DNA from: Pelagicoccus enzymogenes
GTDB lineage: Bacteria > Verrucomicrobiota > Verrucomicrobiia > Opitutales > Opitutaceae
Direction of reading: 5' to 3'
Length of the DNA stretch: 35,020 bases
NCBI RefSeq assembly: GCF_014803405.1
Contig: NZ_JACYFG010000017.1
Location: forward strand, 1 to 35,020
Within the stretch, counting starts at the first letter, position 1, and each line of letters opens with the position of its first letter. A model generated the notes under the pieces. It ran no database searches and had not been told where the DNA came from. It saw nothing but the letters and a program-made list of their open reading frames with translations. The translations under genes were made by a program, and so were the position numbers. Below are positions 4,084 to 35,020 of this stretch, in pieces.

Positions 4084-4161
4084 ATCGGGACGCAGTTGTA
4101 TCCTGACCGTCAGACGCTTCGGCGCTTGCCGGGGCGAGGGATTTCGTTTGGCTTTCCTCCG

Positions 4162-6186
4162 ATGTACCCGGCTCCTAAGCGATTTCTAGCCTACTCATTT
4201 CTTCTAAGCTTTTCCGCCGTTTGGCTACGGGCTCACGACGCGGTCTACTTGCCCGCTTTCGAGGTTGCGGGGCGGGAAAGCTCCTTGCACGGCGAAGCGT
4301 CGAGCGCGTCGCAGGGCTTCGTGGGAGCAGACGAGTTGCAGCTTTCCCTTGGCGAGGGGAGCGGGGGGCTGCTGGAGGCGGTGCCCGGGATGGTCGCCAC
4401 CCAGCACAGCGGTTCCGGCAAGGGCAACCAGTATTTCCTCAGAGGCTTCAACCTCGACCACGGCACGGATTTCGCGGTTTCGGTGGACGGCATGCCGGTG
4501 AACATCGCCTCGCACGGACACGGGCAGGGCTACGCCGACTTAAACTTCCTCATCCCGGAGATGGTTTCCATGGTCTCCTACTTGAAGGGCCCCTACTATT
4601 CGATGGTGGGCGACTTTTCCTCGGCGGGTTCGGCGAGCCTGCAACTGCGTGATTTGGTGGAGCGGGACTTTGCGGAAGTGGGTATTGGCGAATATGGGCA
4701 GCAACGCTTCGTGTCGGGCGTTTCCCGGGAGCTGGCCGGCGGCGATAGCCTGTTTGGCCTCGAGTTGGAGAACAACGACGGTCCTTGGGATCTGGACGAA
4801 AACCTCAGGAAGCGAAACGGATTCTTTCGGTATTCGAAAGGTAACTACGATCAAAAGTTTTCCCTGACCTTCATGGGCTACGATTCCAGCTGGACGGCTA
4901 CCGACCAGATCCCCGAGCGGGAAGTTGAATCGGGGCGTCTGTCGGATTTCGGTTTCGTGGATCCAACGGTTGGCGGCAGGACCAGCCGCTACAGCCTCTC
5001 GGCCAATTGGAAGCGAGATCGTGGACACGTGCGAACTTTTGCCACGGCTTACGGAATTCATTACGACATGAACCTGTGGTCGAACTTTACCTACTTCCTC
5101 GACGACGAAGAGGATGGCGACCAGTTCGAGCAGGCGGACCGGCGGCAGACCTATGGCTTGAGTCTGGGCAAGGTTTTTTATTACCAAGAGCTCTGGGGAA
5201 AGCAGGTGAACCATACCGTGATTTTGCAAGGCCGGTGGGACGAGATCGACAAGCTGGGGCTTTACAAGACGCGGGAACGGAGTCGGTTGGAAGCGGTACG
5301 CGAAGATGCGGCCAGCGTGGTTTCGACGGCCCTAGCCTACGAGGCGACCCTCGATTGGACTGCCCGCTTGAGGAGCCAGGTCGGGATGCGTTGGGATAGG
5401 GTTGACGGCGAGGTGCAAGCCATCGGAGGGCTCGCTTCCCGTAAGGCGGGCGACGATATCGTAAGCCCGAAGGCGAACTTGATTTTCACGCAGAACGACG
5501 CCTTTGAATGGTACGCGAGCTTTGGCGAAGCCTTTCACAGCAACGACGTTCGCGGCATGGTGGATGGGGCCGATCCCTTGGCGGGCTCGCAAGGGAGCGA
5601 GCTAGGTCTGCGTTACCAGATTCCCGGCAAGCTGAACGCGTCGCTGGCGGTGTGGGACTTGGACCTCGACTCGGAGCTGCTCTATGTTGGGGATGCCGGT
5701 ACCAACGAGATTTCAGGCGCCAGCGAGCGGAACGGAGTGGATGTGGCTGTTTACGCTGCCCTGAGCGGGAACCTAAGCATGGACTTGGACTACACCTGGA
5801 GCGATGCCCGCTACCGGGACGCGGCGGCTGGCGAGGCCTTCATTCCTGGAGTGGTGGAGGAGAAGCTGGGCTTGGGAGCGGTTTACCGTTTTGGCGAGGA
5901 CTACGATGTTTCCCTGCGCTATCGCTACTTCGGAGGCCGTCCTTTGGATGAAGCGGGATCCGTGTTTTCGGAATCCTCGGAAACGGTTTCCTTGCAAGTT
6001 GCGGGACGCTTGTCGGATTGGGAGTGGACGGCGCAGCTTTCGAATCTGTTCGATTCGCGGGATCCCGATATCAGCTACTACTACGAATCGCGCTTGCCGG
6101 GCGAACCGAGCGGAGGAGTAGCGGACATTCATTCCCACGTGATGAAGCCGCGTCGCTTGCAGCTTACGCTGAGGCGTCTTTTTTAG
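4162..6186 (+). CDS. TonB-dependent outer-membrane receptor
   Basis: A 674-residue outer-membrane transporter. The start at ATG 4162 gives a clear signal peptide (MYPAPKRFLAYSFLLSFSAV, cleaved near LRA-HDA). The plug domain follows at about residues 40-150, including FLRGFNLDHGTDFAVSVDG and the His/Gly-rich SHGHGQGYADLNF. The remainder is beta-barrel in character and ends in Phe (TLRRLF), as expected for BAM substrates. A TTG at 4096 in the same frame would add residues ahead of the signal peptide and is less likely. The substrate is not readable from sequence; no siderophore or sugar-uptake genes are adjacent. The convergent secreted protein at 6434-6937 could be a functional partner, but that is conjecture. 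Confidence 0.88.
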   Translation: MYPAPKRFLAYSFLLSFSAVWLRAHDAVYLPAFEVAGRESSLHGEASSASQGFVGADELQLSLGEGSGGLLEAVPGMVATQHSGSGKGNQYFLRGFNLDHGTDFAVSVDGMPVNIASHGHGQGYADLNFLIPEMVSMVSYLKGPYYSMVGDFSSAGSASLQLRDLVERDFAEVGIGEYGQQRFVSGVSRELAGGDSLFGLELENNDGPWDLDENLRKRNGFFRYSKGNYDQKFSLTFMGYDSSWTATDQIPEREVESGRLSDFGFVDPTVGGRTSRYSLSANWKRDRGHVRTFATAYGIHYDMNLWSNFTYFLDDEEDGDQFEQADRRQTYGLSLGKVFYYQELWGKQVNHTVILQGRWDEIDKLGLYKTRERSRLEAVREDAASVVSTALAYEATLDWTARLRSQVGMRWDRVDGEVQAIGGLASRKAGDDIVSPKANLIFTQNDAFEWYASFGEAFHSNDVRGMVDGADPLAGSQGSELGLRYQIPGKLNASLAVWDLDLDSELLYVGDAGTNEISGASERNGVDVAVYAALSGNLSMDLDYTWSDARYRDAAAGEAFIPGVVEEKLGLGAVYRFGEDYDVSLRYRYFGGRPLDEAGSVFSESSETVSLQVAGRLSDWEWTAQLSNLFDSRDPDISYYYESRLPGEPSGGVADIHSHVMKPRRLQLTLRRLF

Positions 6187-7199: not shown

Positions 7200-10100
7200 A
7201 TGTTTAGAACGCCGCGATTGATCCGTGGGATAGCTACTGCTTTGACTGCATTTTCGGCTATCTTGATTGCCCAAACATACGCCCAGCCGCACCAGTTGGA
7301 GTATCTTGACCGGGGAGTAGTGGCCGTGAAGGCCAACGAATCCCAGATCTACGTTTCCTGGCGCTTGCTAGTCAGCGACCCGGAGACGGTCGGCTTTAAC
7401 GTGTATCGCTCCTCCGGTGGGGAACCGGCGGTTCGACTCAATGGGTCTCCGTTGTATGCAACTACGGACTACATGGACAGCGCTGCGGATCTCGCCGTAG
7501 ACAACACCTACTTTGTGCGAACTGTGGTTGACGGTGTGGAACTGGCAGCGAGTCGCTCTTTCGAGATAGCGGCGAACGCTCCGGTCCAACAGTACCTCAG
7601 CTTGCCGCTTCAGATTCCGGAAGGGGGAACTACGCCGGATGGAGTCAATTACAGCTATTCCGCGAACGACCTTTCGGTGGGCGATCTCGACGGAGACGGC
7701 CGCTACGAAATCGTCGTCAAGTGGTACCCTTCCAATGCGAAGGACAATGCCCAGTCGGGGCATACGGGCAATTGTTTGCTCGACGCTTACACCTTGGAAG
7801 GAGAGTTGCTTTGGAGAATCGATCTGGGCGTCAACATCCGCTCGGGTTCCCACTACACCCAGTTCATCGTGTATGATCTCGATGGAGACGGGATCGCGGA
7901 GCTCGCTTGCCGCACCGCGGAAGGGTCCAAGGATGCGAGCGGCGCATTTGTAGCTGCTCCCGAGAATTGGTTTGGAGAAGTTCCTCCGATAGACCACACC
8001 GCTGACCGTCGCAATTCCAGCGGATACATCTTGGATGGGCCTGAATTCTTGACGGTCTACGACGGCCGCACGGGCCTGGAGCTTTCGTCTACGCTCTACG
8101 AGCCCCAGCGTGTACCGGGCACCTTCTTCCCGAGTCCTGCGGAAACGGAAGCGATCTGGGGAGACGGATACGGAAACCGTATCGACCGTTTCTTGGGTAC
8201 GGTGGCTTACCTCGATGGGGAGCGTCCTAGCCTTGTAATGTGTCGTGGATACTACACGGGCAGAAACGGGGTTCCGGGCCGTACCGTTTTGGCCGCTTAT
8301 GATTGGCGCGATGGGGCGCTCACCAAGCGTTGGGTTTTCGACACCTACAACAATCCAGAGAACGACGCATATCGTGGTCAAGGCGCCCACAGTTTGACGG
8401 TGGGCGACGTCGATGGTGACGGTCGGGACGAGATCGTCTACGGCGCCTGCGCGATCGACGACGACGGTACTGGACTTTATAGCACAGGCATTGGTCATGG
8501 TGATGCCTTGCATCTTTCAGACATGGATCCAGATCGCCCTGGTTTGGAGGTTTGGATGCCTCATGAGTCGCCCTCAAGCTACGGCGAGTACGGATCCGAG
8601 CTGCACGACGCGGGCACGGGCGAGGTTATCTTTGGGGTTTCGGGCGAAGGTTCGGATGTCGGACGTGGCGCTGCTGCGGACATCGACCCCCGCTACCGTG
8701 GATACGAGACCTGGGCGTCGCGGGGCGGCATGCATAGCATCGCCGGCCAGTCGATTGAGACCAATGGGCTCCCTTCCATGAATTTTCTCGTATGGTGGGA
8801 TGCGGATCCTCTTCGCGAGCTTTTGGACGGGACTCGGATCGACAAGTGGAATTGGGATCTCGGACAGCGCGAATTGATGTTCACGGACACGGGCATCGCT
8901 TCCAACAATGGCACGAAGGCGACTCCGGCTTTGAGCGCTGACATTTATGGGGACTGGCGCGAAGAGGTAATCTGGCGTTCGACCGATAGCTCTGAGCTAC
9001 GCATTTACAGCACGGTCATTCCTGCCGTCAGCCGCATGACGACGCTCATGCACGACCGGCAGTATCGCATTGCCATCAGCTGGCAGAACGTCGCTTACAA
9101 CCAGCCGCCGCACCCAAGCTTCTTCGTGGGGCATGGGATGGCGACACCTCCGAAACCCGACTACTATTTCGCCAGCAGCAACCAAGCTCCCTTCGTCAGC
9201 ATGGTTTCGCCCAGCGAAGGCGCGGTGTTCGAAGAGGGAGAAGTCGCTTCCCTGGTCGCTGAAGCGAGCGATGCCGATGGCGTGGTGGAGCAAGTGGACT
9301 TCTTCCAAAACAACAGTTTCCTCGGAATGGATCTCAGCGATCCTTACACCGCATTGTGGGATGCTGCCAGTGGTGGCTCTTATCTGTTGCGAGCCGTCGC
9401 TACTGACGACGATGGCGCTCAATCGATTTCGCTACCTGTCACTGTGACAGTGGGTCATACGGAGACGCATGACGAAGCAACGGCCTCGATGGGGTGGACC
9501 CCGTTGCAGTCGAGCCTAGAAGGGTATCGAGGAGATGGATACTTAGCGTTCAGCCGCCCATGGCACTTCATCGAGTTCACTAACCTGGATGGCGGGCTGC
9601 TCGCTGGGGAGAAAACGCTTAGAATCCGTTACAGCGCGGGCCGCCCCGGCATGAATCCCTGTTTCTTGACGGTGAACGGCGTGCGGCAGATGATTCAGCT
9701 CCCTTCCACCGGTTCTTGGACGGAGTGGGCGACGTTTGAAGTAAAGGTACCTCTGAATAGTGGGGCTGTGAATACAGTCCGTCTGCAAGCTCGCGGTGGT
9801 CAGACTATGGTTGACGAGCTCACGGTGGCGGGGATCGTTCGCAATCAAGACCCAGAGCTGCAACTGATCGCTCCCGCGGACGGCATGACATTTGCCGAAG
9901 GGGTCGATATCCAGATTCGGGTGGAGGCTCAGGACATCGGAGGTGAGATTGCCTCGGTCGAATTCTTTGCCGGCGAGCTGTCTCTAGGCAGCGTCAGCGA
10001 AGCGCCTTATCAACTCGTCTGGAATGACGTTGGCGAAGGGCTGTACGCTTTGAAAGCTACCGCTACGGACGACTTGGGCGCGACAGCTGAATCAGCCGAA

Positions 10101-13100
10101 GCCGTGGTATTGGTGAACAATCCGCCCAGCGTCTCGATCAGTTTCCCGAGCGATGGCGCTTACCTGCCGTCTGGCGAGGTGGTGACGATCACAGCTGAGG
10201 CTGACGATGGGGTGGGTAGCATTGCCGCGGTAGACTTCTTCGAAGGCGAAACCCTTCTCGGGAGCGACACGGAAGCACCCTATGCGGTCGACTGGTCGAG
10301 CGAGGTGGAGGGACCGTACTCCTTCTTCGCAGTGGCGACCGATAACCGCGGCGCCTCCACCCAATCCCAGCCTGTGGAGCTGATTGTGAACCCAGCTGGC
10401 TACAGCGTTGTTTATCAAGCGGAAGACGCGACGCTAAGCGGCGACTCTGTTGCGGAATCCTCGAACGACGGTTTCAATGGAACGGGATACGTGAACTCGC
10501 CGACGGATGGAGGTTCCATCCTGTTTGAAAACGTAGATGGCGGTTCGGGCAGCATGGCGATCTTGCGTATCCGTTACGTGCTCGGAGCGGCTGCGTCTCG
10601 TACGGGTAGCCTGACCGTCAACGGCATGACTCAGAGTATCGAGTTTCCACCTACAGGTAGTTGGACGACCTACGCGACGATGGATCTGCCGTTCCCGTTC
10701 GACGCAATGGAGTCGAACACGATCGAGATTCGCTCGACCGGAGAGGATCTTGCCAATATCGATGAGATCGCGGTGCTTGGCTTGCAAAGCGAAGCGGATC
10801 GCACCTACCACGCGGAAAACGCTTATGCGGAAAACGTTTCACTGGAAACGAACAACCTCGGCTACAACGGAACCGGTTTCTACAATTTCCCAAGCGCTGA
10901 CGGAATTCTCGAATTCCGCGATATCGACGGCGGTATTGGCGGAACCATTACAATGCGAGTTCGCTATGCTCTGGGAGCTTCCGGCTCTCGCGTAGGCACT
11001 CTCACCATCAATGGCGTTGAATCGCCCATCGACTTCCCATCGACGGGAGGCTGGACCAATTACGACACGATTGAGTTGAGCGTCAGCTTGTTGGCAGGTC
11101 CGCAAAACACTATCCGGATTGCCTCCATCGGAAACGACCTTGGGAACGTCGACGAAATCGTGCTTTCGGGAATCACTCCTAACGATATCCCGGAGGTTAC
11201 GCTTTTGACGCCGACCGATCTTGAACAGGATCCCGCGACCCTGTTCCTCGTGGGCGATTCCACGGTGGCCTCCTACGGTAGCAGTTCCTATCCGCAGCGA
11301 GGCTGGGGGCAAGAGTTGCAAGCCTTTCTGTTCGATGGCGAATTCGAGGTAGTCAATCGAGCCCGCGGGGGACGCAGCTCGCGCAGCTACATCGAAGAAG
11401 GCCTCTGGGACAACGTAAAGGCAGAGCTTTCCCCGGGCGATTACCTGATGGTCCAGTTTGGCCACAACGACCGGGACTGGTCGAAGGAAGAGCGCTACAC
11501 GCCACCTGAAGACTACAAGGTTTACCTCGCCCAGTACGTCAACGAGGCGAGGGCGCTCGGAGTGGAGCCCATCCTCGTGACTCCCATGGTGATGAACGCC
11601 TGGAGAAATGGGGCCATGCGTAACGTATTCACCGAGTCAGGAAACGACTATGCAGGCTCGATGAAAGAAGTGGCGGCCGAACTTGGGGTTCCCCTGGTGG
11701 ATCTCAATGCCAAGTCGCATGCCTTCTTCAGCGCGCTTGATTACGACACCGCAGGCCGTTTCTACTTCAACACGTATGTAGCGGGTGAATACCCGAACTT
11801 CCCGAACGGTAGCGGCGACGGGACCCACTTCCAGGAGATGGGCGCCTTGCTCATGGCCAAGATGATCGCCGAGGGGCTTCGCGAGCTGCAAGCTGATCCA
11901 GTCGCGGGCGTCCTTGCCGACGCTTTGACCGCCCAGTATCCGATCTCGATCAAGGCCAACGATCCTTCTCTCGGTCGCGTTTCGCTGAGCACGGAGCTTC
12001 CGGAAGGCGTGCAAGTGACTTTGAAAGCGCTGGCTGCCGAAGGGCAAAGTTTCGTCAGTTGGAAAGACGGCCAAAACAATCCAGTTACGGAAGAGAACAT
12101 CCACACGTTTGAGATGGGTCCCGAGGCAGCGTCGTTTATCGCTTACTTCAACGACGAGACTCCAGTTGGTCCACCGGCTCCAGGCGTGAAGCTTCCTGCA
12201 GGAGTAAACGCGACCGCAGGTTGGAAGCTGGGAGACCTGATGACTTTCACTGCGGAAGCGAGTGACCCGGACGGGGAAATCGTGAAAGTCGAGTACTTCG
12301 CCCGCGATACGCGCATCAAGATCGGGGAAGCTACGGAAGCTCCTTATACCTTCGACTGGATCGTGGAAGGCGGTACCTACGATGTCTGGGCGGAAGCCAT
12401 CGACAACCACGGCGCCCGCGGAGAGTCCGAGCCTTACTCCGTCAGCATCGATATTCTCAACGAGGTGCCAACGGTCGCGATCTCTAGGCCGTCCACGGGT
12501 GAGGTATTCGTGGAAGGGGAGAGCTTGATTATCGAGGCCTTGGCCAGCGATCCGGATGGCTCGATCCTACGTGTCGACTTCTACGCGGACGGCGAGTTGC
12601 TCGGGTCGGATAGTGAAGCTCCGTATTCAATGAATTGGGACAACCTGGAAGCGGGACCTCGCACCGTAGCCGTTCAGGCCGTAGACAACTTTGGCGAAGC
12701 GTCCAGCCTAGTGGAGCGAGCGGTAGGCGTGCTCTTCTCGGAGGGCGGTTCTTTGATCCAAGAGGCGGAAGACGGCATCCTTAGCGGAAACTTCGTCGTG
12801 ATTGACGATGAAGCAGCCAGCGGCGGAAAAGCGGTCGATGCGATTGGTGGATCTGGTCAGGATTGGGTCGAGTTCCGCTTCAACGTGGAAGTCGCTGGCT
12901 TCTACCACATCCGCACCCTCGTACGAGCGATTGATGGTACGCATGATTCCATGTTCGTGACCATCGATGGAGATACCGCGACAGAGCACACTTGGGATAC
13001 GGCCCGTTCGTCTGCCTTCATCGAAGACTACGTGAAGAATCGTCGCGGCGAAGATCCGGTCGAAGTCCTTTTGGAAGCCGGCGCCCATGTGGTTCGTTTC

Positions 13101-16064
13101 AGCTACCGTGAAAACCTGCAGCTTGATCTTGTCGAGCTGAAGCTCGATCGCGAGCGACCTGCGAACTTCGCCCCTGAGGTTGCCATCAACCAACCCACTG
13201 CGGGGCATGTTTTTGCGGCTGGCGAGTCAATCGAGCTCTCAGCGACCGCGGCCGACGCCGATGGGGAGGTTGCTCGCGTGGAGTACTACGTGAACGGCTC
13301 CAAGATCGGAGAAGCGAGCGTGGCTCCGTATTCATTAATCTGGGACGGTGCTGAAAGTGGCAATCACAGCCTCGTGGCGATTGCCACCGACGACCAAGGG
13401 GCCAGCGCCACTTCCGAACCGGTTGAAATCTCGGTCCTGTTCGCAAGCGGGGGTGAATCTTCCCAAGAGGCGGAAGGAGCCGTAGCTGTTGGTTTGATTA
13501 CGGTGGTGGACGATGCTGGCGCCAGCGGCGGTCAGTTCATGGCGTTCCATGACCCGGAGGCCACGGGCATCCAGTCGGGCGTTGCCTACCAGATCGTAAA
13601 CTTGGGCAGCGGACACGCGGTCGAAGCGAATGGTCGGGCTGTCTCCCAAGCGGTTGTCGATGGTTCGGCCGCTCAAAAGTGGATACTCACCGAGAACGCT
13701 GACGGATACTACAGTGTCATTTCCGTGGAGACGGGCGAGGCGCTGGACGAGTACCGCGGCGGATCGACCAATGTGGGGACTTGGACTTTCGGCGGGGCCT
13801 CCAACCAACAGTGGGGATTCGTGGAGGACGGTGGCGCCTACATCGTGAGCGCCCGGAGCAGTTCCAACGTGTTGTCGGTGGAAGAGCCGATGGATGCTGA
13901 TGGATCGAATGTCTACCGTACGGCCGACGGCGGCAGCGATTACCAGCGCTGGGCGCTGGTCGCGGCAAGCAGTGGAAGTGGGCCTGAATCGAACTACTTG
14001 GAATTCCGTTTCAACGTGGAAGAGGCCGAAACCTACAACCTATCGGTCACTTACCGAGCGCTCGATGAGAACCGCAATTCGGTCTACGTCTCCGTAGACG
14101 GAGGGCCTGCGGACCAGTACCTCTGGGAAATGCCGCTGACAAGCGGTTTCGAATCGGCGCTCGTTACTCCAGTCGGCCAGGATGAAACGCTTGAGCTGGA
14201 ATTGGCCGCTGGGCCTCATGTCGTGCGACTTGGATACAGCGAACCCGTTGACATAGACCAGGTGGAGCTGGTGCTCGATCCAGATATCGGAAACGGCCGT
14301 ACTTACCAGTTCGTCAACGTCGGCAGCGGCAAGGCGCTGCAGTCTACGAGTCGCGCGGTCACGCAGGGCGACAACCTGTTTGCCGATTCGCAACAGTGGG
14401 TCGTTGAGGAACTCTCCGAAGGGGAATACAGCATTATCCTGAAAGGCACCTCCGAAGGATTGGACCACTATATCAACGATGGCAACATCGGCACTTGGAC
14501 CTTCAACGCGTCCAAGCCGAACCAACGTTGGAGAATCGTCGAGGTGGAAGCGGGCAAGTACACGCTGTCGCCGGTCGATAGCGATGCGTCCATCGTAGCC
14601 AGCGTCTCGTCGACTGCGGACGGCGCCAATGTCGCTCCCGCTGCCTACGTCGCAGATCCGCTCCAGCAATGGCTGATCGTGGCTCCGGGCGTTGCGGAAC
14701 CCAAGGCCCATACCATCTACACGATTGGCGACTCCACGGTCGCGAATTACAGCGCCGGCTACTACCCGCAAACCGGATGGGGGCAGGTCCTCGGCGGTTT
14801 CTTCGACCCTGAGGTGGAAGTGAAGAACCGGGCGATCGGCGGCACGAGCTCGCGCAGCTTCTACAACAACCATTGGGCGACGGTGCGCGACGAGTTGAAA
14901 GAGGGAGACTTCGTCCTGATTGGCTTTGGCATCAACGACCGGGCGGCTGACGAGGAGCGAAATACCACGGGGGAGGAATTCAAGGAGTTCCTGACTCTGT
15001 TCGCTGCGGAAACGCAAGCAGCGGGAGCGATCCCTGTATTGGTTTCTACAGTACGGCGCAATGCGTGGAATGGAGAGTGGAACGGGGGAGACCCGACCAC
15101 GCTGTATGATTCCTACCACGAGCATCCAGTGATGACTCGGGAGCTAGCGGGAGAACTCGGATTGCCCTTGATCGATCTCGACCTCGAGGCGGGCATTCTC
15201 ATGGAGTCGCTGGGACCAGACTACACGGGCCCCTTCATGTACATGAACCTAGGTGCGGACGAATACCCGATCGGCGCCAAGGCCGATGACGTTCATTTCC
15301 AGGAAATGGGAGCCATCGAGATGGCGCGACTGGTGGTCGAAGGTATCGAATCTCTCGATACGGATCCGAATGTGAGCGCCTTGATCGAATGGATCGAGCC
15401 ATCTTACGAAGTGGCGGTGAGCAGCAACGACGCCTCCATGGGAATCGTCACGCGCACCGCGAGCTACCCCGAGGGTACGAACGTTACCGTCAAGGCCTTG
15501 CCCGCCGATGGATACGAGTTGGTTCATTGGGAAGATGCGAGCGGCGCGGTGGTGTCCACCGATGCCCTTATGATCTTCACGATGGGCGCCGAGCCGCTCA
15601 GCTTCCACGCGGTTTTCGGCGAGTCAGCTCCGGTTGAGCCGGATGCGGCGACGGGTATCCTTCCCGGCGAAACCTACACCATTGCGAACCTTGGAAGCGG
15701 GCTTCAGCTGCAGAACGCCTCCGGGCGCGAGGTCACTCAAGGCGCGGAGTCCGGGGCCGCTAACCAGACCTTTGTCCTAAGCAAGCTCGAAGACGGTTAC
15801 TGGACAGTCACCTCGGTGGCGAACTCGGAAAATTTGGATACCTACAACGGCAACCAAGTGGGGACCTACGTTGCGAGCCCCACAAACCCCAACCAGAATT
15901 GGACGATCGTCCTCGAGGGAGGGGCCTACCGTTTCGAATCGCGCTCAAGAGTCGGAAGCGTGTTGTCGGTTGACGGCGACAGCCTCGACGACGGGGCCAA
16001 TGTCGGTTGGACGGCGGACGCGGGGAGCGACTTCCAGCGCTGGACGCTGTCGATCGTAGAATGA
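7200..16064 (+). CDS. Giant secreted rhamnogalacturonan lyase / bi-acetylesterase
   Basis: A 2954-residue exported enzyme. The signal peptide is at about 1-28. A PL11 rhamnogalacturonan lyase spans about 30-660: LEYLDRGVVAVK, SWRLL, and calcium-type DLDGDG/DVDGDG loops as in YesW/YesX. Then follow Ig-like 668-755, CBM35-like 755-885, Ig-like 884-970 and 974-1065, CBM35-like 1069-1197 and 1202-1327, CE12 acetylesterase 1344-1568 (GDST, GGRSSRS, FGHND, DGTHF), InlB-like 1579-1654, Ig-like 1659-1756 and 1757-1849, CBM 1852-1984, Ig-like 1989-2080, a CBM split by a ricin-type domain (about 2085-2360), ricin-type 2364-2497, a second CE12 2502-2721 (GDST, GGTSSRS, FGIND, DDVHF), InlB-like 2734-2812 and ricin-type 2817-2954. 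Predicted role: deacetylation and eliminative cleavage of rhamnogalacturonan I. No membrane anchor or sorting tail is seen. Domain edges are approximate. Confidence 0.9.
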   Translation: MFRTPRLIRGIATALTAFSAILIAQTYAQPHQLEYLDRGVVAVKANESQIYVSWRLLVSDPETVGFNVYRSSGGEPAVRLNGSPLYATTDYMDSAADLAVDNTYFVRTVVDGVELAASRSFEIAANAPVQQYLSLPLQIPEGGTTPDGVNYSYSANDLSVGDLDGDGRYEIVVKWYPSNAKDNAQSGHTGNCLLDAYTLEGELLWRIDLGVNIRSGSHYTQFIVYDLDGDGIAELACRTAEGSKDASGAFVAAPENWFGEVPPIDHTADRRNSSGYILDGPEFLTVYDGRTGLELSSTLYEPQRVPGTFFPSPAETEAIWGDGYGNRIDRFLGTVAYLDGERPSLVMCRGYYTGRNGVPGRTVLAAYDWRDGALTKRWVFDTYNNPENDAYRGQGAHSLTVGDVDGDGRDEIVYGACAIDDDGTGLYSTGIGHGDALHLSDMDPDRPGLEVWMPHESPSSYGEYGSELHDAGTGEVIFGVSGEGSDVGRGAAADIDPRYRGYETWASRGGMHSIAGQSIETNGLPSMNFLVWWDADPLRELLDGTRIDKWNWDLGQRELMFTDTGIASNNGTKATPALSADIYGDWREEVIWRSTDSSELRIYSTVIPAVSRMTTLMHDRQYRIAISWQNVAYNQPPHPSFFVGHGMATPPKPDYYFASSNQAPFVSMVSPSEGAVFEEGEVASLVAEASDADGVVEQVDFFQNNSFLGMDLSDPYTALWDAASGGSYLLRAVATDDDGAQSISLPVTVTVGHTETHDEATASMGWTPLQSSLEGYRGDGYLAFSRPWHFIEFTNLDGGLLAGEKTLRIRYSAGRPGMNPCFLTVNGVRQMIQLPSTGSWTEWATFEVKVPLNSGAVNTVRLQARGGQTMVDELTVAGIVRNQDPELQLIAPADGMTFAEGVDIQIRVEAQDIGGEIASVEFFAGELSLGSVSEAPYQLVWNDVGEGLYALKATATDDLGATAESAEAVVLVNNPPSVSISFPSDGAYLPSGEVVTITAEADDGVGSIAAVDFFEGETLLGSDTEAPYAVDWSSEVEGPYSFFAVATDNRGASTQSQPVELIVNPAGYSVVYQAEDATLSGDSVAESSNDGFNGTGYVNSPTDGGSILFENVDGGSGSMAILRIRYVLGAAASRTGSLTVNGMTQSIEFPPTGSWTTYATMDLPFPFDAMESNTIEIRSTGEDLANIDEIAVLGLQSEADRTYHAENAYAENVSLETNNLGYNGTGFYNFPSADGILEFRDIDGGIGGTITMRVRYALGASGSRVGTLTINGVESPIDFPSTGGWTNYDTIELSVSLLAGPQNTIRIASIGNDLGNVDEIVLSGITPNDIPEVTLLTPTDLEQDPATLFLVGDSTVASYGSSSYPQRGWGQELQAFLFDGEFEVVNRARGGRSSRSYIEEGLWDNVKAELSPGDYLMVQFGHNDRDWSKEERYTPPEDYKVYLAQYVNEARALGVEPILVTPMVMNAWRNGAMRNVFTESGNDYAGSMKEVAAELGVPLVDLNAKSHAFFSALDYDTAGRFYFNTYVAGEYPNFPNGSGDGTHFQEMGALLMAKMIAEGLRELQADPVAGVLADALTAQYPISIKANDPSLGRVSLSTELPEGVQVTLKALAAEGQSFVSWKDGQNNPVTEENIHTFEMGPEAASFIAYFNDETPVGPPAPGVKLPAGVNATAGWKLGDLMTFTAEASDPDGEIVKVEYFARDTRIKIGEATEAPYTFDWIVEGGTYDVWAEAIDNHGARGESEPYSVSIDILNEVPTVAISRPSTGEVFVEGESLIIEALASDPDGSILRVDFYADGELLGSDSEAPYSMNWDNLEAGPRTVAVQAVDNFGEASSLVERAVGVLFSEGGSLIQEAEDGILSGNFVVIDDEAASGGKAVDAIGGSGQDWVEFRFNVEVAGFYHIRTLVRAIDGTHDSMFVTIDGDTATEHTWDTARSSAFIEDYVKNRRGEDPVEVLLEAGAHVVRFSYRENLQLDLVELKLDRERPANFAPEVAINQPTAGHVFAAGESIELSATAADADGEVARVEYYVNGSKIGEASVAPYSLIWDGAESGNHSLVAIATDDQGASATSEPVEISVLFASGGESSQEAEGAVAVGLITVVDDAGASGGQFMAFHDPEATGIQSGVAYQIVNLGSGHAVEANGRAVSQAVVDGSAAQKWILTENADGYYSVISVETGEALDEYRGGSTNVGTWTFGGASNQQWGFVEDGGAYIVSARSSSNVLSVEEPMDADGSNVYRTADGGSDYQRWALVAASSGSGPESNYLEFRFNVEEAETYNLSVTYRALDENRNSVYVSVDGGPADQYLWEMPLTSGFESALVTPVGQDETLELELAAGPHVVRLGYSEPVDIDQVELVLDPDIGNGRTYQFVNVGSGKALQSTSRAVTQGDNLFADSQQWVVEELSEGEYSIILKGTSEGLDHYINDGNIGTWTFNASKPNQRWRIVEVEAGKYTLSPVDSDASIVASVSSTADGANVAPAAYVADPLQQWLIVAPGVAEPKAHTIYTIGDSTVANYSAGYYPQTGWGQVLGGFFDPEVEVKNRAIGGTSSRSFYNNHWATVRDELKEGDFVLIGFGINDRAADEERNTTGEEFKEFLTLFAAETQAAGAIPVLVSTVRRNAWNGEWNGGDPTTLYDSYHEHPVMTRELAGELGLPLIDLDLEAGILMESLGPDYTGPFMYMNLGADEYPIGAKADDVHFQEMGAIEMARLVVEGIESLDTDPNVSALIEWIEPSYEVAVSSNDASMGIVTRTASYPEGTNVTVKALPADGYELVHWEDASGAVVSTDALMIFTMGAEPLSFHAVFGESAPVEPDAATGILPGETYTIANLGSGLQLQNASGREVTQGAESGAANQTFVLSKLEDGYWTVTSVANSENLDTYNGNQVGTYVASPTNPNQNWTIVLEGGAYRFESRSRVGSVLSVDGDSLDDGANVGWTADAGSDFQRWTLSIVE

Positions 16065-16137: not shown

Positions 16138-16731
16138 ATGAATATGAACTTAAAGAAACGCGCTCGGATTCTAGCGGGCGTACTCGCGGCGGGGATCGCT
16201 TGCTCCAGCGCCAGCGCCCTTAGCTTCACCTTTTCGCAAGGCGGTTTCGCGGAAGGAGCCACCCTGACGGGAAGCTTTTCTGGAGACGACGACAATGGAG
16301 ACGGTTACCTCTCCCACCTTCCGTTCGCTCTCCCAAGCGCGATCGAGGAGATCACGAGCTTCAGCCTCAGCTTTTCCGGCAACTCGCTGGTGGGGGCCTT
16401 CACGCTGGGGCTTTCGGAATTGGAGGGCCTCTCGTTCAAGCTAGGTGGGGACGCCTTGATTGGAAATGACTTCGATCCAGTGCTGGGCCCCGAGGGCTTG
16501 GCGGTCTTCGATGGGGCGACGGGGAGCTACTTTTTCGCAGGCGAGGTTTTCACCTCCCTCTCTGGAGCGCAGGGCGAGGTCGGAAACTTTTATTCTCTCT
16601 CGATGGACGTTTCCTCCAGCGGGGCTTCCGCGGTGGAGCAGGTTCCCGATGCGGGAAGTTCTGCGGCCTTGCTAGGGGGCGCCATGCTCGGGCTTTTGGC
16701 GATCGGCCGTCGTTGCTCGCGTAGCGGCTAA
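16138..16731 (+). CDS. Exported protein with VPDSG-type C-terminal sorting signal
   Basis: A 197-residue surface or exported protein. The N-terminal signal peptide (MNMNLKKRARILAGVLAAGI) is cleaved near SASA-LSF. The body is rich in Gly, Ser, Phe and Asp, with no recognised enzyme motif. The C terminus from residue 169 has the tripartite sorting layout: VPDAGSS, a hydrophobic helix (AALLGGAMLGLLAIG), then the basic cluster RRCSR. This is the VPDSG-CTERM variant of PEP-CTERM signals, expected to be processed by an exosortase; no exosortase gene is in the window. The motif reads VPDAG where the type sequence is VPDSG. The next gene starts 3 bases after its stop, so the two are probably co-transcribed. 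Confidence 0.75.
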   Translation: MNMNLKKRARILAGVLAAGIACSSASALSFTFSQGGFAEGATLTGSFSGDDDNGDGYLSHLPFALPSAIEEITSFSLSFSGNSLVGAFTLGLSELEGLSFKLGGDALIGNDFDPVLGPEGLAVFDGATGSYFFAGEVFTSLSGAQGEVGNFYSLSMDVSSSGASAVEQVPDAGSSAALLGGAMLGLLAIGRRCSRSG

Positions 16732-16734
16732 ACA

Positions 16735-17970
16735 ATGTCGGTCGTTGCGGGTAAGCTACGTTTTGCGGTGGTGAGCAGCCTTCTTTTTGGGGGCTGCTTG
16801 TTGTCGTTTGTTGCGGGGCGCTGGAGCGCTAGCGCAGGAACGGGGGAGTGGGGAGCAAGCCAGGCTCAACCAGGGCTGGAACGCGTTTCTACCGAGCCTC
16901 GTTCCTCTTTGCCTGCGCCCTCTGGTTCGATCCGGGCCACTCAGGACTCGGTCGAGGTCGAGTCGCTGGCCAGCCCGCCGGCGGAGCTCGAGCGGAATAC
17001 GCTCTTCGGAGCCTTGCTCGAGCGTCAGACCTTGGAACTGCGGGAATGGGCGGAGACCGATCCGCTAGGGGCCATGCGACGGGCGGGCTTGGCCCGTTTC
17101 AAGCAAGACAGGCTCAGCTTGCAGCGAGCGGCCCTAGAAGGCTGGGCCCGCCAAGACCCCTTGGCCGCAGCCCGATACGCGGCCGATTTCGCTCTGGAGG
17201 AGCGGGAAGGCGCTTTGTTCGCCGCTCTGCGCGGGGCGGCGATCGAGCCGGAGGGAGCCCTCCAGGTGATGGACTTTCTGGTGGAGGAGGCTGCCTTGGA
17301 GGGAGCGGCCCTGCGGCGCGCCAAATTGAGTTTGGTGTCGGCTCTCGCCCAGCACGGGCACTTCGGGGACGCGGTGGGCTTCGCCCGAGCGGAAGGGGAG
17401 GCCGCCCAGCGTGCGGTGTTGCTGGAAGCCGGCTTGTCCCAATGGGCCCGCTTTCAGCCCGAAGCGGCAGTTTCCAGCGCCATGTCCATCGACAATGCCC
17501 AGGAGCGCGAAGCCGCGTTTTCAGTGGTGACCGCGACTTGGGGCGGCGTTGATCCGGGGGGGCTGGCTGAGTTTGCGGATGAATTGCCGAAAGGCCGCCA
17601 GCGGTCGGAGGTCATGAGGCAGGCTTTGCAGCAGTGGGTTGCCCGCGCCCCGCTGGAGGCCGCGGAGTGGATGGAGGGGAGGGAACCCGCCGCGGAGTTG
17701 GACACCGGCGTGCTCGCCCTCGCCACTCATCCCTACCTGGCGGAGCGAAGCCCGCTGGTCGCGGTGAGTTGGGCGGAATCGCTTTGGGACGAAAATTTGC
17801 GGGCGAATACCTTGTCGCTGGTGGTGAAGCAATGGGCGGCCACGGATCGACGGGCCGCGATCGCCTACGTGAGAGAAAGTCCCGAAATTCCGCTTGCGGA
17901 ACGCCAGGAGCTGCTAGCCCTCTTCGGGGAGCCCAAGGAGTTTGGCATCGACGGGAGCTTGCAGCGGTAG
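16735..17970 (+). CDS. Membrane-anchored alpha-helical W..DP.AA repeat protein
   Basis: A 411-residue protein with one N-terminal transmembrane or signal-anchor segment (about 9-27, VVSSLLFGGCLLSFVAG), a short Ser/Pro-rich linker, then an almost purely helical domain rich in Ala, Glu and Arg. A degenerate unit recurs: WAETDPLGAMRRA, WARQDPLAAARYA, WARFQPEAAVSSA, WGGVDPGGLAEFA, WVARAPLEAAEWM, WAATDRRAAIAYV. The spacing is about 30-50 residues. This resembles HEAT/TPR-like solenoids seen in verrucomicrobial exported proteins. Function unknown; a scaffold or periplasmic protein-protein role is plausible. It starts 3 bases after the VPDSG protein's stop. Confidence 0.6.
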   Translation: MSVVAGKLRFAVVSSLLFGGCLLSFVAGRWSASAGTGEWGASQAQPGLERVSTEPRSSLPAPSGSIRATQDSVEVESLASPPAELERNTLFGALLERQTLELREWAETDPLGAMRRAGLARFKQDRLSLQRAALEGWARQDPLAAARYAADFALEEREGALFAALRGAAIEPEGALQVMDFLVEEAALEGAALRRAKLSLVSALAQHGHFGDAVGFARAEGEAAQRAVLLEAGLSQWARFQPEAAVSSAMSIDNAQEREAAFSVVTATWGGVDPGGLAEFADELPKGRQRSEVMRQALQQWVARAPLEAAEWMEGREPAAELDTGVLALATHPYLAERSPLVAVSWAESLWDENLRANTLSLVVKQWAATDRRAAIAYVRESPEIPLAERQELLALFGEPKEFGIDGSLQR

Positions 17971-22107: not shown

Positions 22108-25100
22108 CTAGTTGCGGGAGTAGGACGTTTCCTTGGGGAGTTCCTTAATCCTCGGCTTTGTTCGCTGAGAAGGGGCGCAAGGTAGGGTCAGCGTTACGGT
22201 TGCGCCTTTGCCGAGGCCTTCGCTGCTGATTTGCAGGTGTCCGCCCAGGTTCTTGGCCGCGTTGGCGCAGCTGTGCATGCCGAAGCCATGTCCGTCGGGT
22301 TTGGTAGTGAACCCATGGGTGAAGATCTTGCGTTCGTTTTCTTCGGAGATGCCGACTCCGTTATCCGTAATCTGGATACGAACGTTGGCGCCTTGGTCGA
22401 TCCGGTGGGCGGATAGGTAGATCAACCCGAGGGGCTTTTGCGATTCGATGATGGACTCCTTCGCGTTCTTGATGAAGTTGGTGACCATTTGCAGGAGGCT
22501 GTGCTTGTCGGACTCGATCTCGAGTTCCGGTTCGAAGTCTCTTACGATTTCGAAGAGGGAGTGTTCGAGGTCCCCCGTGATCATCTCCAAGGCGTCGTCT
22601 ATCAGCTCTTCGATCTTCACCGCCTGCAGCACTTCGACGGTTTTGGCGTGGGCCTGTTGGGTGGCGATGATCTTTTTTACGTGCTCGATGTTTTCCTGCA
22701 TGCATTCCACATCTACGCGGTAGTGGGAATTGTCGTCGCTCAGCACGGCAGAAAGTTGGGTGAGGTAGGCCGGGATGGCTTTGCCTTTGGGGTCATTGGT
22801 CAGGAAGTCCGCCAAGTCATCTTGATGCTCGTTTATCATTTTGGATACACGAACCAACTTGCTCACTCTTTCCTGGGAGAGCCGCTCCGAAAGGGACAGC
22901 AATGCCACGTTGATGCTGTTGAGCACGTTGCCGACATTGTGCAGCACGTTGGTGGCGACCTCGGCCATGCCCGCCTTGCGCGAGGTGCTCATCAGCAAGT
23001 CTTGGGCGCTGCGAAGTTCTTCGAGGGTCGTCGAGAGTTCGTTGGCGTTTCGTTGCAGCTCGCTGTTTTTGCTTTCGATTTCCTGGGTGCGCTCGGCTAC
23101 CATCTTTTCCAGCTTGAAGTTGGTCTTCTTCAGGTTTTGGGCGAATAGCCCGTATCCCAAATACAGTAGCGCGAGGAAAAGCAGGATGTAGCAAAGGTAT
23201 GCGAGCGGCGTCTCGAAGAAGGTGGGAGCGATGGAGAGGGCGACCGTTAGTTCCTGAGGGGCGGTCGATTCGTTGGAGCGGGACCGCACTCTCAAGGTGT
23301 AGTCGCCGGCCTCGAGGCGCGTGAAGCTGATTTCGTTGGAGGTGCTCCATTTGGACCAGTCGCTCGACATTCCTTCGAGCAGGTACTGGTATTGCGGGAC
23401 TTTGACGGTGGCGGAGTTGGTGCTCCCCACGCGGATGGAGAGGCTGCGGCGGTCGCTTGCCAGCTCGAGCTTCTCCGGGTTGTTGCCATGGCCAGGATTT
23501 TGGTAGTAGGTGGAGGAGCCTTCGATGTCAGAAACTTCGAAGAGGAAGAGGCCTTGCTTAGGCGAGTCGCGGGGAGGAGCCAACAGGGAGCCGTTGACGT
23601 GGAAGAGTTCGGAGGCGGTGAGGAGTAGGGCGTCGCCGTTGGAGAGGAACTTGAACTGGTTGAAGAATTGGTCGCCGACGTGTCTGAGCGAACTCGAGTC
23701 CTTGAGGTAGGTTCCGTCTTCTTGCTTCCACAGGATGTAGTTGAAACTGTCATACGACGCCCAGATGTTTCCTTTCGGGTCGGTCGCGACGCGGTGGAAA
23801 ATGCCGGTGGAAGGGAGGTAGGCCTCGATGATGCTCGACTTTGCGAAAGCGTTGCCGCGGGGCTGAAATTCGAAGATTCCTTTGCTGCTAGTGAAGAGGA
23901 CTTCTCCTTCGTGTTCCCAGACGGCGATCCAGTCGGTAGGGAGTCCGCTCTCTTGCTTGAAAAGCTGGTACTCGATAGCTCCGCCCTGCACGCGGGCCCT
24001 CCCAACTTGTCCGATTCCGATCTCCAGCCAGAAGGTGTCGTCTGCCGCGCGAGCGATCTTGTTGATATGGCCGGCTTGGTGGGGAACTTCGCTGAGGATC
24101 TTCATTTGCTCGCCCTGACGCTGCAGGACGAGGAGGGAATCGGCGGTGGCGGCGAAAAGGGTATCGGGATCGTTTTCGAAGGGGGTCATGCGCTCGATGT
24201 ACCCGGTTCTACCCAGCTCGCGGGCGATTCCCTTTTGCAAAAGGTGGGTGTACTTGCCTCCTTGGAAGTAGATGCCGTCGCGGGTGGCGGAGGCGGCGAC
24301 GATGGAACGGTCGAGTTCCGGCGTGGTATCGACGAAGCCTTGCAGGCTGCCATGTTCGCTGAAGTCGGGTTTGAGGAGCCTCCCATTGGTGCGGAGGTAG
24401 ATTTGCCCGTCGACTTCGTGGGCGATGGGATATTCGACGCCGGTGCTGAGGCGCTCGTCGATCTGGGAGAGGGCGCTGTTGACGATGACTTTGCCGACCG
24501 TGGAATTGAATTGGACCCAGAGGGTTTGGTTTTGGTCGAGGTGGAGGGCGTTAGCGCTGACCCAGCGGTAGTCGAAGTCGCGAGCGAGGGTAGATAGGGT
24601 TCGTCCTTCGCGGTTCACGAAGTAGATACCTTTGTGGGCAACGCTGATGGCGAGCCGGTCTTCGGAAATAAACTCGAGATCGCGTATGGCGCCGCCGGCC
24701 TGGAAGGGAAAGGGGCTGTAGTCGGCCAGTTGCCCATCGGCGGCGATGCGATAGATCTCGTTGCTCTCGGTGGTGAAGTAAGTTTCGCCGGATGGGTTCG
24801 TTTCGATTTTGAGAATTACGTGCTTGTCGACGAATTCCTTGAAGGCGGGATGCGGGGCGTAGTCTTTGCCTTCGAAGACCAGGATCCCGTCCCGAGTGGT
24901 CGCGAGCAGCAGCTTGTCCCCGTAGATGGCGGAGCCTTTGACCCATGAGTCGAAGGCGATGGCGCCATACTCTTCGGTGGCGAGGTTCAGGTAGGCGACG
25001 CTCCGTTCTCCTAGAAAGTAGAGGGTGTCGCCCTGGCGCAGGATTTTGGAGTAGAACTCGCTGCTGTACTTCGTGAGCGGCTTGTCGTTGATGGGCTGCA

Positions 25101-25458
25101 GGCGGATGCCGTTCTCGTTTTGAAAGTCGATTTTTCCGATGGTGCCGTATCCGGCAGCGTAGACGCCGTTCTCCGTCCAGTAGAGCGAGCGGATCTTGTC
25201 TTGGGTGGAAGGGGTGCTGAGCACGTGCTTCCAACGGGTCCCGTCGAAGGTGTGCAGGCCGTTTTCGCAGCCGAAGAACAGGCGCCCGTCGGGAGCGGTC
25301 GTGATGAAGTTGGAGCGGGAGCTGTTCTCGATATCCTTCTCTTCGTAGATTTGGTAAAAAGGAATCCCGTTCAGGCGAGGGGGGCTTGGAGGCGAGAGAG
25401 TGTCGGCGCTCAAGGTGCCGATCAGGGCGAGCAGGAGAGGGGCGAGGAGGCGCTTCAT
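22108..25458 (-). CDS. Beta-propeller / Y_Y_Y membrane sensor histidine kinase
   Basis: A 1116-residue inner-membrane sensor kinase. A signal peptide (MKRLLAPLLLALIGTLSADT) leads into a long periplasmic region of reg_prop-type propeller repeats (about 25-660), e.g. APDGRLFFGCENGLHTFDG. Then comes a Y_Y_Y-like Ig domain (about 665-745), one transmembrane segment (about 748-772, LAYLCYILLFLALLYLGYGL), a coiled coil, and a kinase core. The phospho-acceptor is H840 in VLHNVGN, a variant H-box. ATP-site motifs are N-box NFIKNAKES (about 994), DNGVGI (about 1031) and HGFGMHS (about 1055). There is no receiver or DNA-binding domain, so it must hand phosphate to another protein. ATG 25458 is chosen over the longer frame because it starts the signal peptide and has AAAGGT upstream. 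It lies 14 bases after the hybrid kinase gene, so the two form an operon. Ligand unknown. Confidence 0.88.
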   Translation of the reverse strand: MKRLLAPLLLALIGTLSADTLSPPSPPRLNGIPFYQIYEEKDIENSSRSNFITTAPDGRLFFGCENGLHTFDGTRWKHVLSTPSTQDKIRSLYWTENGVYAAGYGTIGKIDFQNENGIRLQPINDKPLTKYSSEFYSKILRQGDTLYFLGERSVAYLNLATEEYGAIAFDSWVKGSAIYGDKLLLATTRDGILVFEGKDYAPHPAFKEFVDKHVILKIETNPSGETYFTTESNEIYRIAADGQLADYSPFPFQAGGAIRDLEFISEDRLAISVAHKGIYFVNREGRTLSTLARDFDYRWVSANALHLDQNQTLWVQFNSTVGKVIVNSALSQIDERLSTGVEYPIAHEVDGQIYLRTNGRLLKPDFSEHGSLQGFVDTTPELDRSIVAASATRDGIYFQGGKYTHLLQKGIARELGRTGYIERMTPFENDPDTLFAATADSLLVLQRQGEQMKILSEVPHQAGHINKIARAADDTFWLEIGIGQVGRARVQGGAIEYQLFKQESGLPTDWIAVWEHEGEVLFTSSKGIFEFQPRGNAFAKSSIIEAYLPSTGIFHRVATDPKGNIWASYDSFNYILWKQEDGTYLKDSSSLRHVGDQFFNQFKFLSNGDALLLTASELFHVNGSLLAPPRDSPKQGLFLFEVSDIEGSSTYYQNPGHGNNPEKLELASDRRSLSIRVGSTNSATVKVPQYQYLLEGMSSDWSKWSTSNEISFTRLEAGDYTLRVRSRSNESTAPQELTVALSIAPTFFETPLAYLCYILLFLALLYLGYGLFAQNLKKTNFKLEKMVAERTQEIESKNSELQRNANELSTTLEELRSAQDLLMSTSRKAGMAEVATNVLHNVGNVLNSINVALLSLSERLSQERVSKLVRVSKMINEHQDDLADFLTNDPKGKAIPAYLTQLSAVLSDDNSHYRVDVECMQENIEHVKKIIATQQAHAKTVEVLQAVKIEELIDDALEMITGDLEHSLFEIVRDFEPELEIESDKHSLLQMVTNFIKNAKESIIESQKPLGLIYLSAHRIDQGANVRIQITDNGVGISEENERKIFTHGFTTKPDGHGFGMHSCANAAKNLGGHLQISSEGLGKGATVTLTLPCAPSQRTKPRIKELPKETSYSRN

Positions 25459-25472
25459 CTTGCGGATTACCT

Positions 25473-33780: not shown

Positions 33781-34713
33781 TCACTGAGCAAGCTGTAAGT
33801 TAAGTTTTTTGAACAGGCTTTGTATGTGTATGAGCATCTTCCTCATTCCAGCGACGATGGCGCACTTGTACGGCTTGCCCTTGTCCCTGAGCTTCTGGAC
33901 GTAAGGTCTTATCACTTCGTTGTGCACCGCAGCAGTTTTGGTCGCCATGTAGAGGCACCGTCTGACTTTGGCTCTACCCTCTTGGATGCGTCTTTTCTTC
34001 TTGGTCTTTCCGCTGTCGTCGTTGAAGGGGGCGATTCCAGCCAAGGCGACGATCTGGTTCCTGTTGAGGGACTCGATCTCGCTGAGGTGCGCGAGCAGGG
34101 TCCAAGCCGTGACTTCGCCCACGCCGCAGACCGAGAGGGCGATGCCTTGCTGGGAGCGCATCTTCGCGTCGCTTTGGACGAGCTCCCTGATGTCCTCTTC
34201 GATCGTCTCAAGCTCGTTCTGCACGATCGCGATCATGCGCTCGATGGATGGGTGGATGAGAGGATCGCTGTTTTGCCGCCGGTTTTTCTCGCGGCTTAGC
34301 TGTTCGCTCAGATGGCTTCTGCGGTCGAGCAGGGCGGCGAGCTGCTGGCGTTTTTCGCAGGGAGGCGTTTGGGGTCGTATGTTCTTCTCTTTCGCGAAGT
34401 TGCGAATCATGCGCGCGTCGATGGGGTCGGTCTTTGCCTTGACCCCCTCGCTCTTGGCGTAGTGTCGCACTCGAGCCGGGTTGACCCTGGCGAAGGGGAG
34501 GCCCTTGGCGAGGAGTTGCTGCATGAGGATTCGCTCGTATCCGCCGGTCGCCTCGAAGACGGCCAAGGGCGTCTTGAAGGTGGCGATGTGGTCGGTCAGC
34601 TCGCTAAGGGCGTCTGCTTTGTTGGATACGCTGAAACTTCGCTTGTCGCTGAGCGCTTCAAGTGTATCTTTCGATATGTCGATTGCGATAATGTCGTATT
34701 CGGTGGGATTCAT
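33781..34713 (-). CDS. IS110-family transposase (DEDD/serine recombinase type)
   Basis: A 310-residue, apparently intact transposase. The N-terminal RuvC-like domain has the DEDD set: D12 (AIDISKD), E54 or E60 (FEATGGYE), D96 and D99 (KTDPIDARM). A helical middle segment follows, then the C-terminal Tnp domain with CGVGEVTAWTLL, the serine-bearing loop APFNDDSG (S234), GRAKVRRCLYM and KPYKCAIVAGMRKML. These enzymes use a structured bridge RNA from the element's non-coding end to pair donor and target DNA. The start at ATG 34713 (MNPTEYDIIA) is chosen because family similarity begins there; the frame stays open upstream through 35001, but that part looks like structured non-coding DNA. Confidence 0.92.
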   Translation of the reverse strand: MNPTEYDIIAIDISKDTLEALSDKRSFSVSNKADALSELTDHIATFKTPLAVFEATGGYERILMQQLLAKGLPFARVNPARVRHYAKSEGVKAKTDPIDARMIRNFAKEKNIRPQTPPCEKRQQLAALLDRRSHLSEQLSREKNRRQNSDPLIHPSIERMIAIVQNELETIEEDIRELVQSDAKMRSQQGIALSVCGVGEVTAWTLLAHLSEIESLNRNQIVALAGIAPFNDDSGKTKKKRRIQEGRAKVRRCLYMATKTAAVHNEVIRPYVQKLRDKGKPYKCAIVAGMRKMLIHIQSLFKKLNLQLAQ

Positions 34714-34990: not shown

Positions 34991-35020
34991 CTGGAAATCA
35001 ATGGTGGGGAACCTACAAGG

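What the first reader, a model, noticed from the sequence alone, without database searches (positions are those of the whole stretch)
7200..16064. Single-chain rhamnogalacturonan-I degradation machine with three catalytic modules
One 2954-residue secreted protein carries a PL11 lyase and two separate CE12-type acetylesterases plus about fifteen accessory modules. These activities are normally encoded by separate genes. Coupling deacetylation to eliminative cleavage in one chain would suit acetylated pectin in plant or algal debris. The window has no other pectin-pathway genes nearby.
Basis: partly seen in the sequence, partly recalled or inferred. Interest (0 to 1): 0.75.

Follow-up and report, generated by a model that had tools for sequence, protein, structure and literature searches.

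The report
Three-enzyme pectin-cutting protein in Opitutaceae
A very long, probably secreted bacterial protein carries one pectin-cutting enzyme and two pectin-deacetylating enzymes on a single chain; it is real and kept in related species, but such fusions have already been noted in print, so it is a good example rather than a surprise.

Summary
Confirmed: one ORF, 7200-16064 (+), 2954 aa, with an N-terminal PL11 rhamnogalacturonan lyase, two SGNH esterases whose nearest solved structures are CE12, and about sixteen accessory modules (6 Big_7, 3 clear and 2 weak CBM35/6-like, 3 ricin-type, 2 InlB-type). Catalytic motifs are intact in both esterases. The catalytic set is kept in 3 of 8 genomes of the genus (Opitutaceae), in the same gene order. 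A paralogue in the same genome has the same chain without either CE12, inside a pectin gene cluster, so the esterases look like later additions. It is not a new kind. Paenibacillus has CE12-PL11 chains (7 of the 80 best PL11 loci), of separate origin on a PL11 tree; a 2023 paper counts 50 CE12+PL11 proteins in CAZy and speculates on linked synergy; a 2026 metaproteome table lists an expressed 'PL11;CE12;CE12' protein. Most likely mechanism (inferred): the esterases strip acetyl groups from RG-I beside the lyase, while CBM35 modules hold the protein on freshly cut ends. No activity was measured.

The parts
7200..16064 (+). whole gene, 2954 aa PL11-CE12-CE12 protein
7200..7283 (+). signal peptide, residues about 1-28 (judged by eye)
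   Evidence: sequence; no signal-peptide program was run
7290..9158 (+). PL11 rhamnogalacturonan lyase: RGI_lyase beta-sheet domain (31-121) and RGL11_C (132-653)
9189..10316 (+). Big_7, CBM35/6-like, Big_7, Big_7 (residues 664-1039)
10395..11189 (+). CBM35a (1066-1196) and CBM35b (1198-1330); PDB relatives 2w87/2w46, 2w3j, 2w1w/2w47, 2vzp
11217..11924 (+). first CE12-type esterase (1340-1575): Ser1354, Asn1423, Asp1540, His1543
11949..12158 (+). InlB-type repeat after the first esterase; absent together with it from the C4 and G002 relatives
12183..13376 (+). Big_7, Big_7, weak CBM35-like module, Big_7
13452..14270 (+). CBM35-like module interrupted by a ricin-type trefoil (about 13551-13964)
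14271..14669 (+). second ricin-type module
14691..15404 (+). second CE12-type esterase (2498-2735): Ser2512, Asn2579, Asp2696, His2699
15417..16061 (+). InlB-type repeat and C-terminal ricin-type module
4096..6186 (+). neighbour kept in synteny: TonB-dependent receptor, nearest to siderophore receptors in NCBIfam but under their cut-offs; link to pectin not shown
16138..17970 (+). neighbours kept in synteny: VPDSG-CTERM protein (197 aa) and 411-aa protein without a Pfam or NCBIfam match

Best explanation
A secreted, single-chain rhamnogalacturonan-I depolymerase. The N-terminal PL11 module cuts the RG-I backbone by beta-elimination, probably endo (shown: family by sequence; inferred: activity and endo mode). 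Two CE12-type esterases of different subtype remove acetyl groups from galacturonic acid that would block the lyase (shown: family, intact motifs; inferred: substrate, and that the two differ in acetyl position or substrate length). CBM35 and ricin-type modules keep the chain on pectin; because PL11 leaves unsaturated uronate ends, and these CBM35s are related to one solved with such a ligand, the lyase may make the docking sites for its own esterases (inferred). The chain arose in one genus of Opitutaceae by adding a CE12-InlB cassette inside, and a CE12-InlB-ricin tail to, a PL11-CBM35 protein (supported by relatives, not proven).
For: PL11: Pfam E 5.6e-225, PDB 4cag 6e-209, YesW 6e-202; the insertion that YesX shows in this alignment is absent, as in YesW. 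CE12: 1deo and 2o14 hit by both modules; Ser, Asp, His, Gly and Asn invariant in 7 aligned sequences; Foldseek best three are CE12 structures of two proteins; the 5 plasmid hits listed (of 29 records matched) are annotated rhamnogalacturonan acetylesterase. CBM35a/b hit, among others, 2w1w/2w47, the CBM35 of the CE12 protein Cthe_3141; the 2w47 ligand named in a figure legend of PMC10483417 is an unsaturated digalacturonate. Both esterases with PL11 on one chain in G001 and G006 with the same neighbours. dN/dS against G001: PL11 0.042, CE12a 0.069, CE12b 0.125; against G006: CE12a 0.173, CE12b 0.056, PL11 not computable (silent sites saturated). The C4 paralogue and G002:C7 join CBM35b directly to Big_7d, without CE12a-InlBa, and lack the CE12b tail. 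A standalone CE12-InlB-ricin gene in G011 is sister to CE12b with SH-aLRT 99.
Against: No activity, ligand or secretion data. CE12 includes xylan as well as pectin acetylesterases, so RG-I specificity of either esterase is inferred. The gene is not in a pectin gene cluster, unlike its paralogue. The best PDB matches of the two CBM35s are not 2w47 but 2w87 and 2w3j, CBM35s with other partners (2vzp, 5f7u, 3zm8) also match, and ligand residues were not checked. 5 of 8 genus members lack the fusion; 2 of those (G004, G005) have no PL11 match at all. The paralogue could have lost the esterases instead: SH-aLRT for the fused group is 88. Whether a 2954-aa chain stays intact after secretion is unknown.
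Confidence: 0.65

Rival explanations
1. The three catalytic modules work independently on different pectin or hemicellulose parts; sharing a chain mainly shares anchoring to the cell wall and secretion, with no deacetylate-then-cut coupling.
For: Long spacers and many binding modules between the domains; the nearest paralogues do without any CE12 on the chain; CE12 covers xylan as well as pectin esters (passages of PMC10483417 and PMC4189754).
Against: CE12 and PL11 share a chain in two separate places of the PL11 tree (2 changes), which suggests a shared benefit.
Confidence: 0.3
2. One of the two esterases is inactive and serves as a binding module.
For: The second module has GIND in place of GHND and is the weaker match to 1deo (1e-6 against 1.3e-14).
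Against: Triad and Gly/Asn residues are intact; YxiM also has GIND; dN/dS of CE12b is 0.125 and 0.056.
Confidence: 0.08
3. The fusion is an assembly or gene-prediction artefact.
For: The window is a whole contig of a 60-contig draft.
Against: Chains with PL11 and both CE12 modules, without stops, in two other genomes with the same flanking genes.
Confidence: 0.01

Closest known systems
CE12:CBM35:PL11 proteins (Metabacillus HUW50_16055; 50 CE12+PL11_1 proteins in CAZy, PMC10483417) and the seven Paenibacillus chains found here
   Same: CE12 and PL11 with carbohydrate-binding-type modules on one chain; linked synergy already proposed in that paper
   Different: HUW50 and the seven Paenibacillus chains run CE12 then PL11 with one CE12 and other accessory modules (Pfam run on 4 of the 7); the Paenibacillus ones have a separate origin on the PL11 and CE12 trees
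Expressed 'PL11;CE12;CE12' protein in Table 1 of PMC13386854 (mSystems 2026)
   Same: identical catalytic string and order; named bifunctional rhamnogalacturonan endolyase and pectin acetylesterase; Opitutaceae are among the main degraders of that study
   Different: source organism and sequence not seen here (Table S2 is not held; Paenibacillus is prominent in the control lakes too), so orthology is open; not discussed in the pectin section
Cthe_3141 (CE12 protein with CBM35; 2w1w, 2w47)
   Same: CE12 with related CBM35 modules
   Different: no PL11 on the chain as far as I recall (not tested here)
PL11-CBM35 relatives without CE12: own paralogue G000:C4 (L021, 1855 aa) and G002:C7 (L027, 1838 aa)
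   Same: same modules in the same order up to CBM35b, then Big_7d, Big_7e and CBM35-like modules; 77% identity in PL11 for L021
   Different: no CE12; lie with a TonB-dependent receptor and a GH28 (both loci), and in the own genome also a GH2 and a separate CE12-like gene

Membership tests
PL11 rhamnogalacturonan lyase | RGI_lyase plus RGL11_C domains over full length | tested here: met
PL11 rhamnogalacturonan lyase | beta-elimination of RG-I | not testable with these tools
   needs an enzyme assay
PL11 endo type (YesW-like) | lack of the insertion that YesX has | tested here: met
   alignment; that this loop decides exo mode is recalled (paper not held)
CE12 | closest solved relatives are rhamnogalacturonan acetylesterase and YxiM | tested here: met
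   sequence for both modules; fold for the second only
CE12 | Ser-Asp-His triad with Gly and Asn of the SGNH fold | tested here: met
   residue roles recalled from RGAE
CE12 | assignment by a CAZy or dbCAN model | not testable with these tools
   no CAZyme library on hand; the NCBIfam PaeY match (1.4e-41, 142.8 bits) is far below its cut-off of 1000
CE12:PL11 single-chain proteins | both catalytic families on one chain | tested here: met
CE12:PL11 single-chain proteins | common descent of the fusion with the Paenibacillus chains | tested here: not met
   two changes on the PL11 tree; separate CE12 clades; no formal clade test was run
CBM35 for unsaturated uronates | sequence relation to 2w1w/2w47 | tested here: met
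   not their best matches
CBM35 for unsaturated uronates | ligand-binding residues | not tested
   source paper not held
Pectin utilisation cluster | adjacent pectin enzymes | tested here: not met
   the paralogue's locus does have them

The most novel reading that the evidence does not exclude
A self-targeting enzyme: the lyase's own unsaturated product ends are the docking sites for the CBM35s that place two esterases of different acetyl-position preference, so each cut recruits the next deacetylation on the same chain; lyase-esterase linking arose at least twice independently, and one genome holds the versions with and without the esterases as a natural experiment.
Probability: 0.3. Interest if true: 0.55.

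Novelty: new member of a known kind. Interest (0 to 1): 0.33.

Why it matters
It gives a clean case of convergent gene fusion between a lyase and its likely helper esterases, with an in-genome paralogue lacking the esterases as the control. That makes the proposed benefit of linking deacetylation to cleavage directly testable, and supplies a ready multi-enzyme for acetylated pectin.

Tried and rejected
Artefact of assembly: rejected, two orthologues without stops and with the same neighbours. Non-CE12 assignment of the esterases: tested and rejected. Recent tandem duplication of the esterase inside the chain: not supported, CE12b is sister to a standalone gene of G011 (SH-aLRT 99) and 42% identical to CE12a; the deeper joining of CE12a and CE12b is unresolved (weak fork, 60), so an old duplication stays open. 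Common origin of the fusion with Paenibacillus: not supported. A wider hunt for more PL11-CE12-CE12 chains: in 252 family genomes (92 with a PL11 match; the tool cut its list of matches) I fetched and scanned every listed frame of 1100 aa or more, and only the three known ones carry CE12; five of the fetched family frames (L135, L136, L138, L142, L146) run off contig ends, so CE12 beyond them is not excluded. Of the phylum listing (387 genomes) several frames of that size were not fetched.

Led nowhere: the model of the interrupted CBM module (mean pLDDT 45.5, not used); papers on CBM35 ligands and YesW/YesX mode are not held; text searches with 'same polypeptide' and with 'multicatalytic' gave 0 papers. 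Rates are rough because silent sites are near or at saturation. The PL11 tree used 56 of 107 collected domains (those over 780 bits and 540 aa) plus the window; the CE12 tree used all 60 modules that passed its filter (over 120 bits and 180 aa), but loci L001-L020 were skipped, so the window's own two modules are represented by their G001 and G006 orthologues. My draft gave the best explanation 0.8; I lowered it to 0.65 because it contains the coupling step that the first rival (0.3) denies.

Full report
What is there. The ORF at 7200-16064 (+) is 2954 aa with no internal stop. Pfam places the RGI_lyase beta-sheet domain at 31-121 and RGL11_C at 132-653; two GDSL/SGNH modules; six Big_7 domains; CBM6/35-like domains at about 755-880, 1066-1196 and 1198-1330 and two weaker ones (about 1850-1980, and 2085-2357 seen by alignment); an InlB-type repeat after each esterase; ricin-type modules in three places. 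The window is the whole of a 35,020-base contig in a 60-contig draft genome. The family is Opitutaceae, inferred because contigs of two 'same family' genomes have the exact lengths of named records: G035:C177, 52,153 bases, as JACSRI010000105.1 (Opitutaceae bacterium VE3), and G009:C8, 169,206 bases, as an Ereboglobus contig.

Catalytic modules. The PL11 part aligns almost end to end with 4cag, YesW and YesX; it lacks the insertion that YesX carries towards the end of the domain, as YesW does. That this loop marks exo action is recalled; the paper is not held. Both esterases match YxiM (2o14) and Aspergillus rhamnogalacturonan acetylesterase (1deo): E 3.7e-18 and 1.3e-14 for the first, 8.5e-15 and 1e-6 for the second. 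Motifs begin at GDST-1352, GGRSSRS-1390, GHND-1421, DGTH-1540 and GDST-2510, GGTSSRS-2547, GIND-2577, DDVH-2696; the corresponding Ser, Gly, Asn, Asp and His are invariant in the 7 sequences aligned. A model of the second esterase with its InlB repeat (mean pLDDT 80.1) has 1deo, 2o14 and 3c1u (a mutant of 1deo) as its first three of 58 Foldseek matches at E <= 0.001, ahead of thioesterases and a xylan esterase; TM-scores are modest (0.50-0.51 by query, 0.47-0.68 by target). The first esterase was not modelled. The second shares GIND with YxiM, the first GHND with 1deo, which suggests two subtypes; this is inference.

Relatives and origin. Of 8 genomes of the genus, 3 (own, G001, G006) carry PL11 with both esterases on one chain; the G001 chain (2821 aa) differs in the second half, lacking the ricin modules before CE12b and having two after it. 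G002 has the unfused relative; G003 and G007 have other PL11 genes; G004 and G005 have no PL11 match. In the three fused genomes the order TonB-dependent receptor, 167-aa gene, this gene, VPDSG-CTERM protein, 411-aa protein, lepA is kept. Nei-Gojobori dN/dS against G001 is 0.042 for PL11, 0.069 for CE12a and 0.125 for CE12b; against G006 0.173 for CE12a and 0.056 for CE12b, with PL11 saturated. The own genome has five PL11 matches. The nearest, on contig C4 (L021, 1855 aa), and its counterpart in G002 (L027, 1838 aa), have the same modules in the same order up to CBM35b, then go straight to Big_7d: the CE12a-InlBa cassette is missing, and so is the CE12b-InlBb-ricin tail. The C4 paralogue lies with a TonB-dependent receptor, a GH28, a GH2 and, beyond the GH2, a separate CE12-like esterase. 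CE12b groups with a standalone CE12-InlB-ricin gene of G011 (SH-aLRT 99). The data favour insertion of one cassette and addition of another; loss from the paralogues is less likely but not excluded, because support for the fused group is 88.

How unusual. Of these 80 loci, 7 (each Paenibacillus) have one CE12 on the same chain, N-terminal to PL11; 23 have a separate CE12-like gene within the DNA held; 50 have neither. The fused state changes twice on a PL11 tree of 57 rows. Among 152 PL11 ORFs in loci L021-L170 (some loci repeat the same record), scanned with a CE12 model made from 40 sequences, two or more CE12 modules occur only in G001 and G006, and outside that count in the window's own gene (L001; L002 and L003 repeat the other two). 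In 252 family genomes 92 have a PL11 match, and among listed frames of at least 1100 aa only the three above 2800 aa carry CE12.

Prior print. PMC10483417 (section 27 read whole, other passages) reports 50 CAZy proteins with CE12 and PL11_1, names CE12:CBM35:PL11 a candidate novel architecture and speculates on linked synergy; to its authors' knowledge none had been characterised. PMC13386854 (section 11 part 1 of 3 with Table 1, section 16, passages) lists an expressed 'PL11;CE12;CE12' protein as bifunctional rhamnogalacturonan endolyase and pectin acetylesterase; its organism is in a supplement that I could not open. Nine text searches were made; in their listings and the passages read I saw no other description of such a protein from Opitutaceae.

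Mechanism. Shown: families, intact active-site motifs, conservation. Inferred: secretion (signal peptide by eye), substrate, coupling. The two best CBM35s match a set of solved CBM35s that includes 2w1w/2w47, from a CE12 protein of Acetivibrio thermocellus, though other CBM35s score slightly better or as well; the ligand named for 2w47 in PMC10483417 is an unsaturated digalacturonate. PL11 lyases leave unsaturated uronate ends (established chemistry), so the lyase could create the docking sites for its own esterases. Ligand residues were not checked.

Verdict. The kind is known; this is an independently evolved member with two esterases and a different module order. Interest 0.33.

Noticed in passing
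window 13452-14270: A ricin-type trefoil sits inside a CBM35-like module; G006 has the same, while the counterpart in G001 and the sister modules of this chain and of the C4 paralogue are uninterrupted.
   Followed up: partly
L041:6225-9041 (G000:C35), also L047, L048, L049: 938-aa protein with three SGNH/CE12-like esterase modules in one chain; similar chains in G003, G006 and G007.
   Followed up: partly
L036:6395-10345 (G009): PL11 fused to a GH42 beta-galactosidase, another two-enzyme pectin chain.
   Followed up: no
window 16735-17970; L027:13186-14346: The 411-aa protein next to the fused gene has a 35% identical relative directly after the unfused PL11 gene of G002, followed there by a GH28 whose best NCBIfam match is alpha-galacturonidase BT4155, below its cut-off.
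   Followed up: partly
window 16138-16731: VPDSG-CTERM sorting-signal protein 73 bases after the fused gene, with relatives at the same place in G001 and G006.
   Followed up: no
window 22108-27311: A Y_Y_Y-type sensor kinase and a hybrid histidine kinase on the minus strand; target unknown.
   Followed up: no
L101:5416-12294: One Paenibacillus CE12-PL11 chain carries three S-layer homology stretches (best at 2115-2157 of 2293), so it is probably held on the cell surface.
   Followed up: no
L042:2-10846 (G000:C4): Open-ended 3615-aa frame with cadherin-like, laminin-G and RHS repeats beside the paralogue's pectin cluster.
   Followed up: no
window 33781-35001: IS110-type transposase at the contig end, a possible reason for the contig break.
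   Followed up: no
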